A stretch of 64,000 nucleotides of DNA from Xenophilus sp. E41 (GTDB lineage Bacteria; Pseudomonadota; Gammaproteobacteria; Burkholderiales; Burkholderiaceae_C): assembly GCF_003671765.1 (NCBI RefSeq), contig NZ_QPIB01000005.1, positions 321,731 through 385,730 on the forward strand, in the 5' to 3' direction. The notes beneath the pieces are model-generated. The model worked only from the letters and a program-made list of their open reading frames with translations. It ran no database searches and had not been told where the DNA came from. A program made the translations under genes and the position numbers. Shown in pieces: positions 14,432 through 41,525 of this stretch (its first letter is position 1; each line of letters begins with the position of its first letter).

Positions 14432-15316
14432 ATGTCACACACCCCCAGTCTTCGCGCACTTCGTGTCGCTTCGCCAACCCCCTTGCAGGGGGCAACGCCA
14501 GCGGCCCGGCCAAGCCGGTTCCGCGGCGTTCCTGATCTTCGCATTCTGGCGTCGGCATTCGCCCACCGCCTCGTCCCCTGGCTCGTGCCCATCGGCCTCA
14601 TCGTCGCCTGGCAGATCGCCTCGTCGCTGGGCTGGCTGTCCACCCGCGTGCTTCCCGCTCCGATCGACGTGGTCAAGGCCGCGTGGTCGCTCACGGTGTC
14701 GGGCGAGCTCTGGACGCACGTCAAGGTCAGCGCCGGCCGTGCGCTGCTGGGCCTGGCCATCGGCGGCGGTGCCGGGCTGGTGCTGGGGCTGCTCACCGGC
14801 TCGGTGAAGTTCTTCGAGACGCTGCTCGACTCCACCATCCAGATGGTGCGCAACATCCCGGCGCTGGCGCTCATCCCGCTGGTGATCCTGTGGTTCGGCA
14901 TCGACGAGACGGCCAAGCTGTTCCTCATCAGCGTGTCGGTGTTCTTCCCGATCTACCTCAACACCTTCCACGGCATCCGCAACGTCGACCCGCAGCTCAT
15001 CGAGATGGGCCGCACCTACGGGCTCACGCGCTGGCAGCTGTATCGCGACGTGATCCTGCCCGGCGCGCTGTCGTCCATCCTTGTGGGCCTGCGCTTCTCG
15101 CTGGGGCTGATGTGGGTGATCCTGATCGTGGCCGAGACCATTTCGGCGCAGGCCGGCATCGGCTACCTGACGATGAACGCCCGCGAGTTCCTGCAGACCG
15201 ACGTGGTGCTGGTCGGCATCCTGCTCTATGCGCTGCTGGGCAAGCTGGCCGACGTGTTCGCACGGGCGCTGGAGCACTGGTGGCTGCGCTGGCATCCCGG
15301 CTACCAGGCGAAGTGA
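14432..15316 (+). CDS. ssuC: Alkanesulfonate ABC transporter permease SsuC
   Basis: A 294-residue inner-membrane permease. About six membrane segments are visible, including LVPWLVPIGLIVAWQIASSL, LLGLAIGGGAGLVLGLLTG and ILVGLRFSLGLMWVILIVAE. The EAA loop that docks on the ATPase is GRTYGLTRWQLYRDVILPGA. The start at 14432 follows the ssuD stop by 2 bp. The first 35 codons are odd: they are encoded by a hairpin-rich repeat (14434-14535), so this N-terminal tail differs from normal SsuC and is repeat-derived. A later start is possible, but no convincing one with a ribosome site is seen. Confidence 0.93.
   Translation: MSHTPSLRALRVASPTPLQGATPAARPSRFRGVPDLRILASAFAHRLVPWLVPIGLIVAWQIASSLGWLSTRVLPAPIDVVKAAWSLTVSGELWTHVKVSAGRALLGLAIGGGAGLVLGLLTGSVKFFETLLDSTIQMVRNIPALALIPLVILWFGIDETAKLFLISVSVFFPIYLNTFHGIRNVDPQLIEMGRTYGLTRWQLYRDVILPGALSSILVGLRFSLGLMWVILIVAETISAQAGIGYLTMNAREFLQTDVVLVGILLYALLGKLADVFARALEHWWLRWHPGYQAK
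14434..14535 (+). repeat. Hairpin-rich leader repeat forming the 5' coding end of ssuC
   Basis: The order is ACACCCCCA, then CTTCGCGCACTTCGTGTCGC, then the hairpin CCCCC-TTGCA-GGGGG, then CCGGC-CAA-GCCGG. The order CACCCCCA, TTCGCG, GTCGCT or ATCGCT, then a C-run/G-run hairpin recurs at 51258-51338 before dsbB, so the two are likely related. It is translated in frame as the SsuC N-terminal tail. Confidence 0.6.
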
Positions 15317-15326
15317 GGACGCAGCC

Positions 15327-16559
15327 ATGAAGAACATCCTTCGACCCACCCGCCGCGAGGCGCTCGGCATGGCCGCGGCGCTGGCCACCGGAGCCGCCTG
15401 GGGGCAGGGGGCCGCCGCTCAGACCGTGCGCATCGGCTACCAGAAGTCCTCCACGCTCGTCGCGGTGCTCAAGATCCAGGGCACGCTCGAGAAACAGTTC
15501 GCGCCGCTGGGCGTCAAGCCGAGCTGGCACGAGTTCACCAGCGGTCTGCCGCTGCTCGAGGCGCTCAACCTCGACAACGTGGACGTCAGCGCCGACGTGG
15601 CCGACACCGTGCCGGTGTTCGCGCAGGCCGCGGGCGCCAAGCTCACCTTCGTCGCGCAGGAGGCGCCGTCGCCCACGGCGCAGGCGATCCTGGTCAAGGC
15701 CGACTCGCCGCTGAAGACGCTGGGCGACCTCAAGGGCCGCAAGATCGGATTCGCCAAGGCCGCGGGCGTGCACTACCTGCTGCTGGCGGCGCTGGAGAAG
15801 GCCGGCCTGTCGTTCAAGGACATCGAACCGGCGTACCTCACGCCCGCCGACGGCCGGGCCGCCTTCGAGCGCGGCGCCATCGACGCCTGGGTGGTGTGGG
15901 ACCCTTTTCTTTCGGCCGCCGAACGCCAGTCGGGCGCCCGCGTGCTCGCCGACGGCACCGGGCTCGCGTCCTACCAGCGCTACTACCTGGCCAGCACCCG
16001 CTTCGCGCGCCTGCAGCCGCAGGTGCTGGGCGTGCTGTACGCCGAGCTCGAGAAGACCGGCCGCTGGGTCAAGCAGAACCCGCGCGACGCGGCCGCGCTG
16101 CTGGCGCCCTTCTGGGGCCTGGACGCCGCCATCGTCGAGCAGGCCAACGCCCGCCGCAGCTATGCCGTGCGCCCCGCCACCCGCGAGGTGATCGGCGAGC
16201 AGCAGCGCATCGCCGATGCCTTCTTCGCCGAGAAGCTGCTGCGCAGGAGCCTGTTCAGTGTCTCCAAGGGGTCGCGTTGGGGCGCAATCGGGATGCGCGT
16301 GGTGCCCGGTCGCGCCGCATGGGCTCATGCCCATGCAAGCGGACGGGTGCCGCGCGTGCCCGATTTCGCCCCAACCCGAAGGGCAGCCGCCTTGCCGGGC
16401 GTCCTGCGGCGTTGCAGCGCTTGCTCGCAGATTACTGCGAGCGGCGCACTGCGCCTTGCACGCCACCCGGCAAGGTGGCTGCGCGACCCCTTGGAGACAC
16501 TGAACAGGCTCCAGGCGGTGGACGCGCTCGACATCGACCTGTTCAAGCCGCCGGCCTGA
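15327..16559 (+). CDS. ssuA: SsuA paralogue 3 carrying an 89-codon in-frame repeat insertion
   Basis: The reading frame gives 410 residues, against about 321 for its relatives. The Tat-like signal is [15 protein letters not shown], with cleavage near AAAQ. Family blocks are [40 protein letters not shown] and [20 protein letters not shown], up to [12 protein letters not shown]. There the 267-bp inverted-repeat element (16246-16512) is inserted, keeping the frame, after which [14 protein letters not shown] ends the protein. Without the element the join would read KLLRKAVDALD, aligning with KLIPKAIKVSD of paralogue 1. The start at 15327 lies 10 bp past the ssuC stop with GAGGA upstream. Whether the extended protein still folds is unknown. 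Confidence 0.9.
16246..16512 (+). repeat. 267-bp structured element with 31-bp perfect terminal inverted repeats, copy 1
   Basis: Positions 16246-16276 are the exact reverse complement of 16482-16512 (31/31). The inner conserved tip reads TGTTCAGTGTCTCCAAGG. Two long internal hairpins peak at GCATGGGC-TCAT-GCCCATGC (16317-16336) and GCTCGCAG-ATTA-CTGCGAGC (16423-16442). The element encodes no transposase. Length is exactly 89 codons, and at least two plus-strand frames run through it without a stop. The second copy is at 41148-41414 in the opposite orientation. Confidence 0.9.
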
Positions 16560-41121: not shown

Positions 41122-41147
41122 GAATTTGCCTTGCCGTCGAGGATGTA

Positions 41148-41414
41148 AGAACGTGTTCAGAGTCTCCAAGGGGTCGCGCAGCCACCTTGCCGGGCGGCCT
41201 GCAAGGCGCAGCGCGCCGCTCGTAGTCATCTACGAGCAAGCGCTGCAACGCCGCAGGCCGCCCGGCAAGGCGGCTGCCCTTCGGGTTGGGGCGCAATCGG
41301 GCCCGCTCAGCGCCCCGTCGCTTGCATGGGCATGAGCCCATGCGGCGCGCCGGGACACTGATCGCATCCCGATTGCACCCCAACGCGACCCCTTGGAGAC
41401 CCTGAACACGTTCT
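41148..41414 (-). repeat. 267-bp structured element with terminal inverted repeats, copy 2
   Basis: Terminal repeats at 41148-41178 and 41384-41414 match in 30 of 31 positions. The element is the reverse complement of the copy at 16246-16512 and has the same length. Its loops are GCTCGTAG-TCAT-CTACGAGC (41218-41237) and GCATGGGC-ATGA-GCCCATGC (41324-41343). The outermost six bases (AGAACG/CGTTCT) differ from those of copy 1 (GGAGCC/GGCTCC) but still pair. It fills most of the 404-bp gap between panE and the reductase gene at 41526; nothing else is seen there. Confidence 0.9.
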
Positions 41415-41525
41415 AAGGAGGGCGGATGATGCTCCGAAGCGGCCCGCGCTGCCGCTGCATGGTCATGCTCGGGCTCCCATAATGGTTGTCCCTCGATTGC
41501 CCTTCACCCATCGCCAGGAGCCCGC

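What the first reader, a model, noticed from the sequence alone, without database searches (positions are those of the whole stretch)
16246..16512. Family of 267-bp non-coding elements with 31-bp terminal inverted repeats
Copies at 16246-16512 and 41148-41414 have exactly the same length, lie in opposite orientations, and have nearly perfect 31-bp inverted ends (31/31 and 30/31). Each holds two further long internal hairpins, so a single strand could fold into a three-armed cruciform. No transposase is encoded. The element is larger than REP or ERIC units and resembles a MITE, but no target duplication is seen. I do not know of a described family that matches it.
Basis: partly seen in the sequence, partly recalled or inferred. 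Interest (0 to 1): 0.85.

Follow-up and report, generated by a model that had tools for sequence, protein, structure and literature searches.

The report
Cloverleaf-shaped mobile DNA with swappable ends
Two copies of a short DNA that carries no gene and can fold like a cloverleaf turn out to be jumping elements of a widespread bacterial family that keeps the same size and shape while its ends differ and, in the cases checked, match different transposases.

Summary
Each window copy is a 265-bp element (16247-16511; 41149-41413) flanked by 3-bp repeats (CAG; TAA). Its ends match those of ~845-bp IS5-family insertion sequences in a genome of the same genus, which duplicate TNA. Related genomes lack it at both sites. 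It is a MITE, mobilised in trans (inferred).

It is not a local oddity. 72 of 399 genomes of its bacterial family give DNA matches. A covariance model of one hairpin arm matches 117 of 369 genomes sampled across the class. Of 44 well-matching sites examined, 39 are bounded by strong inverted repeats; 37 of these are 264-277 bp long, and all 39 fold alike: a ~30-bp outer stem and two ~98-nt arms, mostly with a mini-hairpin between. End sequences of 57 members fall into about 20 groups; three groups match three different IS5-family transposons.

Best reading: one conserved, shape-constrained core that travels on different transposases by exchanging its ends. Which protein or process needs the fold is unknown, and 17 end groups have no partner found. 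No Rfam family covers the members tested; ten literature searches found no description, but one possibly relevant paper could not be read.

The parts
16247..16511 (.). Copy 1 of the element, 265 bp (order on + strand: outer stem, arm B, mini-hairpin, arm A, outer stem)
16244..16246 (.). Left 3-bp direct repeat CAG of copy 1 (right one: 16512-16514)
16512..16514 (.). Right 3-bp direct repeat CAG of copy 1
16247..16275 (+). Left strand of the outer stem (terminal inverted repeat) of copy 1; right strand 16483-16511
16276..16375 (+). Arm B of copy 1, 100 nt
16376..16382 (+). Mini-hairpin CCGAAGG of copy 1
16383..16482 (-). Arm A of copy 1, 100 nt, carries the conserved bulged motif; arm-model match 16383-16481, 84.6 bits
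41149..41413 (.). Copy 2 of the element, 265 bp, opposite orientation
41146..41148 (.). Left 3-bp direct repeat TAA of copy 2 (right one: 41414-41416)
41414..41416 (.). Right 3-bp direct repeat TAA of copy 2
41178..41277 (+). Arm A of copy 2; arm-model match 41179-41277, 90 bits
41278..41284 (+). Mini-hairpin of copy 2
41285..41384 (-). Arm B of copy 2; matches the arm model in inverted sense (41285-41382, 40.1 bits, E 2e-7)
15228..16559 (+). ORF of an ABC-transporter substrate-binding protein (SsuA-like by my reading) interrupted by copy 1; it stays open through the element

Best explanation
The two copies are MITEs: non-autonomous DNA elements cut and pasted in trans by IS5-family transposases that recognise the outer ~16-18 bp and duplicate 3 bp (TNA). 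Behind those ends lies a conserved core: outer stem, arm, mini-hairpin, inverted arm, a palindrome of palindromes whose dimensions (about 30 bp, 98 nt, 7 nt, 98 nt; about 268 bp in all) and bulged motif GCAAGGCGC...GCAACGCC recur in many families of the class, while the terminal sequences differ. Proposed working: the folded DNA (cruciform or single strand) is the conserved form. Because both ends pair in the fold, a change in one end can be copied to the other by template switching, so that the core can acquire a matched new pair of ends and travel on another transposase. SHOWN: 3-bp duplications; uninterrupted sites in relatives; IS ends equal to element ends for three end groups (for the window's group within one genome, for the other two between genomes); constant architecture; the two ends of one copy more alike than ends of different copies. 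INFERRED: transposition in trans, template switching as the cause, and that a protein or a step of replication needs the fold. My odds by step: MITE of IS5-type helpers 0.95; one superfamily with exchanged ends 0.8; DNA rather than RNA as the conserved folded form 0.55; template switching as the way of exchange 0.45. The confidence below is for the whole without the last two steps being required.
For: Direct repeats: 53 of 114 unique copies have identical 3-bp flanks, 52 of them TNA; shifted controls 0-4 of 114. Uninterrupted sites in relatives at both window positions. IS5-family ISs with the same ends and TNA repeats: 5 of 5 with both ends read, five more of five; transposase NF033580. Class-wide: 117 of 369 genomes match the arm model; 39 of 44 sites examined have end repeats above the null maximum, 37 of these 39 are 264-277 bp long; 39 of 39 fold into an outer stem and two arms, random-interior control 3 of 200; second arm found inverted in 28 of 42 loci. 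57 elements fall into 20 end groups; IS5-family ISs found for three. Variable end columns match 94% within a copy, 77% between copies of one genome, 57% between genomes. No G-T over A-C excess in 88 pairs of 113 copies: 134 versus 145.
Against: 61 of 114 copies lack identical 3-bp flanks. 12 of 20 element-bearing genomes searched, the window's own among them, show no relative of the helper transposase; its own three PF01609 genes lack these ends. 17 of 20 end groups have no IS partner found, though only held loci and three plasmid queries were searched, and two of the three partners lie in other genomes than the element. The arm alignment was built from 34 of 42 arms that had passed a motif-score cut, out of 73 arms, so its invariant motif columns are partly chosen. 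One pair column is G-T in 84 copies, the model-fitted class alignment shows G-T excess 159 to 38, and symmetric pairing gives uneven results in the window's family.
Confidence: 0.75

Rival explanations
1. Structured RNA: the element is kept because its transcript folds (RNase site, terminator, small RNA), and mobility is secondary.
For: Very stable folds; pairing kept through double changes in 29 of 35 arm pairs; G-T excess in the model-fitted class alignment.
Against: No G-T over A-C excess with an alignment not fitted to a structure model (134 versus 145 in 88 pairs, one G-T-rich pair set aside), nor with symmetric pairing class-wide (157 versus 193). No Rfam match to the elements. This excludes best an RNA of one fixed strand; RNA from either strand is not excluded.
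Confidence: 0.12
2. Pairing without function: the element is an ordinary MITE and the perfect arms are a by-product of template switching in long palindromes; size and fold are inherited, not selected.
For: Ends of one copy change in step, also in divergent copies of the own genome such as L371, 26 of 26.
Against: The motif and unpaired columns are conserved: 37 of 89 columns unpaired in the model are at least 95% identical in 113 copies, though some of these can pair. Total length 264-277 bp in 37 of 39 class-wide members with about 20 kinds of ends is hard to expect without constraint.
Confidence: 0.25
3. Convergence: unrelated MITEs of several ISs arrive at the same shape because only that size and fold is tolerated or transposable.
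For: Ends are unrelated between groups; arm sequences outside the motif vary widely.
Against: Arms from different end groups align almost without gaps, with a motif at a fixed place (arms chosen by motif score); the model finds class-wide arms at E down to 1e-18 and nothing else in the window below E 0.4.
Confidence: 0.1
4. Kinship with the Correia elements (CREE/NEMIS) of Neisseria.
For: Short shared words (CAAGGCG, CAACGCCG); weak local alignments of 14 CREE stretches with the core, shuffle fractions 0 to 0.05 in the forward sense.
Against: No arm-model match at E up to 1 in four loci holding CREE; other ends (TATAGTGGATTAA) and lengths of 69, 106 and 155-156 bp in the 11 with both ends.
Confidence: 0.03

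Closest known systems
Bacterial MITEs mobilised by IS5-family ISs (review PMC10969869, passages and outline seen)
   Same: Under 500 bp, terminal inverted repeats, short target duplication, no gene, ends shared with an IS.
   Different: Conserved internal cloverleaf of constant size across a class, and about 20 different kinds of ends on the same kind of core; GC-rich, not AT-rich.
Correia repeat enclosed elements (CREE/NEMIS) of Neisseria (PMC5039591, passages seen)
   Same: Small, many copies, inverted ends, hairpin core.
   Different: 69-156 bp in those read here, other ends, no arm-model match.
REP/BIME palindromes (PMC3733652, abstract start in listing)
   Same: Dispersed palindromic repeats.
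   Different: REPs are 20-40 bp by that abstract; these are 265 bp with target duplications.
MITEs of Polaromonas sp. JS666 (Mattes 2008, cited in PMC10969869; text not held)
   Same: Reported in a bacterium that I recall as a member of the same family; may be the same element in part.
   Different: Could not be compared.

Membership tests
Bacterial MITE | Terminal inverted repeats, under 500 bp, no transposase gene | tested here: met
   265 bp, 29-bp paired ends
Bacterial MITE | Target site duplication | tested here: met
   Both window copies; 53 of 114 unique copies
Bacterial MITE | Insertion seen against uninterrupted sites | tested here: met
IS5-family-mobilised MITE | Ends shared with an IS5-family element of the same target duplication | tested here: met
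   G013 ISs with the same ends and TNA repeats, NF033580
IS5-family-mobilised MITE | Helper transposase in the same genome | tested here: not met
   Not found in the window's own genome; present in G013
IS5-family-mobilised MITE | Transposition in trans demonstrated | not testable with these tools
   Needs a bench assay
Correia element (CREE) | TATAGTGGATTAA ends and Correia core | tested here: not met
   Ends differ; no arm-model match in four CREE loci
REP/BIME | 20-40 bp palindrome | tested here: not met
   265 bp; size of REPs from PMC3733652 abstract
Any Rfam RNA family | Match at gathering score | tested here: not met
   Window and 20 loci with class- or order-wide members: no hit over an element; below gathering only weak miRNA-family hits
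Catalogued MITE in ISfinder | Sequence match to a listed element | not testable with these tools
   ISfinder not available

The most novel reading that the evidence does not exclude
A single ancient superfamily of selfish DNA, spread over the class, is defined not by its ends but by a conserved folded DNA shape: a cloverleaf of fixed dimensions with a bulged GCAAGGCG/GCAACGCC motif in its arms. It changes transposase by rewriting both ends at once through its own palindrome, and the folded form is recognised by a common host or replication factor.
Probability: 0.4. Interest if true: 0.88.

Novelty: new variant of a known kind. Interest (0 to 1): 0.76.

Why it matters
MITEs are usually taken as stripped remains of one IS. 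A core that keeps size, fold and motif while its ends differ in about 20 ways suggests that some MITEs are lineages of their own that live off a succession of transposases. It also makes a testable case for DNA secondary structure as a conserved feature of bacterial chromosomes, and gives a name and a search model to many unannotated repeats in this class.

Tried and rejected
RNA reading: disfavoured by the G-T versus A-C count (134 to 145 in 88 pairs of 113 copies, one column with 84 G-T set aside; 218 to 145 with it). Side results are mixed and told as found: the model-fitted class alignment gives 159 to 38, which I put down to fitting and to selection by the model; symmetric pairing of 36 class-wide elements gives 157 to 193 in the arms and 36 to 36 in the outer stem, but in the window's family arm A gives 154 to 267 and arm B, turned to motif sense, 353 to 242. 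I have no explanation for the last two.

Correia kinship: shared short words only.

Phage or plasmid carriage: no phage match; no plasmid match for the window copy; one plasmid record for another copy at E up to 1e-5, Comamonas odontotermitis NZ_CP083452.1; a short single-arm form on Cupriavidus basilensis pRK1-5. A weak hit on the C. metallidurans CH34 megaplasmid was read and showed no element. Five viral contigs for a strict core pattern. No E. coli match for one class-wide member.

IS partners for other end groups: three plasmid queries gave nothing useful; a scan of held loci gave two more partners.

Rows dropped: 13 of 133 loci without paired ends; copies under 250 bp and identical copies before the alignment, leaving 113 of 119; 3 class sites at contig edges, and 3 of the 20 regions (L373, L383, L386) not examined. 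Of the 39 sites with ends, L372 is the same place as L350, L343 is window copy 2 and L341 another member of its family. Wrong boundaries (L305, L308, L312, L315, L321) and wrong orientation of minus-strand loci were redone; L305 was dropped. In one search some minus-strand loci were printed at the wrong place and were not used.

Gene context by a crude ORF rule: 51 of 58 between genes, 7 possibly inside one; not pursued.

Literature, listings only. Passages: PMC9012009, PMC5039591, PMC10969869 (outline 67), PMC4853749. In these I saw no description of this element; the library lacks most subscription papers, and Mattes 2008 on Polaromonas JS666 was not held.

Full report
Observation. The limits shift by one base at each end, to 265 bp (16247-16511 and 41149-41413), flanked by CAG/CAG and TAA/TAA. 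A third close copy lies on another contig of the genome.

Mobility. From 133 loci of the own and related genomes, 120 copies have paired ends; 110 of the 120 are 265-270 bp long. Of 114 unique copies, 53 have identical 3-bp flanks, 52 of these TNA; shifted controls give 0 to 4. In the genus, 4 of 14 genomes, the own included, give DNA matches. By match coordinates the copy-2 site is uninterrupted in G001, G006 and G008, and the copy-1 site in G001, G006, G008 and G009 with 0 to 10 bases between the flank matches. The sequence was read for G001 at both sites and for G003, G004, G005, G007, G008, G010 and G012 at copy 1. G009 carries a 166-bp form lacking one arm at the copy-2 site.

Helper. All ten with both ends read (five, five, one of these from G078) have matching TNA flanks. 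The transposase is IS5 family (NF033580). The own genome has three PF01609 matches, none with these ends, and no relative of that transposase, so the window copies probably no longer move there. Of 20 genomes searched, 8 have a match to the transposase and 12 have none, among them the element-rich G201, G272, G397 and G403.

Spread. With window copy 1 as DNA query, 72 of 399 family genomes (48 of 141 genera) match at E up to 0.001; by my count of the listing 31 of the 399 have a match spanning at least 200 of the 267 bases; two candidates per genome were scored. The extracted copies include 21 from G201, 16 from G272 and 13 from G311 after removal of identical ones. With a copy from G201 as query, 35 of 399 order genomes and 7 of 369 class genomes match; the 31 order genomes outside the family match only within query 24-160, that is arm A.

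Superfamily. Around those distant arm matches lie complete elements with other ends but the same size: 18 of 20 read are 264-287 bp, one is a 163-bp single-arm form and one 307 bp. Of 37 elements folded (20 of the window's family, 17 others), 34 have two arms of 96-105 nt. Thirty-four arms, chosen from 42 that passed a motif-score cut out of 73, align almost without gaps with 11 invariant columns; 29 of 35 predicted pairs show changes on both sides. A covariance model of the arm finds in the window nothing but the two copies below E 0.4. It matches 117 of 369 class genomes and 93 of 272 genera, at most 11 candidates scored per genome. I examined 44 of its best sites; 39 have end repeats scoring 14 or more, null maximum 11.5 in 183 places; 37 of the 39 are 264-277 bp long, the others 287 and 317. 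All 39 fold into an outer stem and two arms of 90-115 nt, 35 with a 7-8-nt mini-hairpin between; a control with random interiors gave 3 of 200. The second arm matches the model in inverted sense in 28 of 42 loci. The own genome holds two such divergent members, L370 and L371.

Exchangeable ends. Ends of 57 elements fall into 20 groups at a 75% cut. Three match ISs: the window group; TAGGGCGTGTTAACACTAATTTC, in L306 and in an 824-bp IS of G013 (L147); and GGAAACGCTGATTAAT, in L381 and in a 1.2-kb IS of G011 (L071). The last two encode IS5-family transposases; here element and IS come from different genomes. Seventeen groups have no partner found.

How it may work. Variable end columns match 94% within a copy, 77% between copies of one genome, 57% between genomes, so the two ends change together. 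Template switching between paired arms (recalled knowledge of quasipalindromes) would do this and would let a core acquire two matched new ends at once; selection for pairing is the alternative. The count of G-T against A-C gives no sign of an RNA of one fixed strand; mixed side results stand under Tried and rejected. The conserved motif and length speak for more than a by-product.

Known or not. No Rfam family covers the elements tested. Ten literature searches found no description. A review cites MITEs in Polaromonas in a paper that I could not read, so part of this family may already be in print. I rate it a new variant of a known kind.

Noticed in passing
window 15228-16559: Copy 1 lies in frame near the 3' end of a substrate-binding-protein ORF, which stays open through 89 extra codons to its usual C-terminus; against G001 the site without element and one repeat would be one base short.
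   Followed up: partly
G013 (Xenophilus sp. Marseille-Q4582): Very IS-rich genome: 96 PF01609 matches against 0-6 in the 13 other genomes of the genus set.
   Followed up: no
   Followed up: no
L237 2336-2451: Next to an IS of the helper type in G078 lies a further inverted pair with related ends about 116 bp apart, perhaps a still smaller element.
   Followed up: no
L355 1178-1361 and L366 1218-1310: Elements sit close to a cobalamin riboswitch and a t44 RNA respectively; effects on these leaders were not studied.
   Followed up: no
L324 (Cupriavidus basilensis plasmid pRK1-5): A short single-arm form with GGACCCTCTGCACGAATC ends on a conjugative plasmid, beside an IS481-family transposase gene.
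   Followed up: partly
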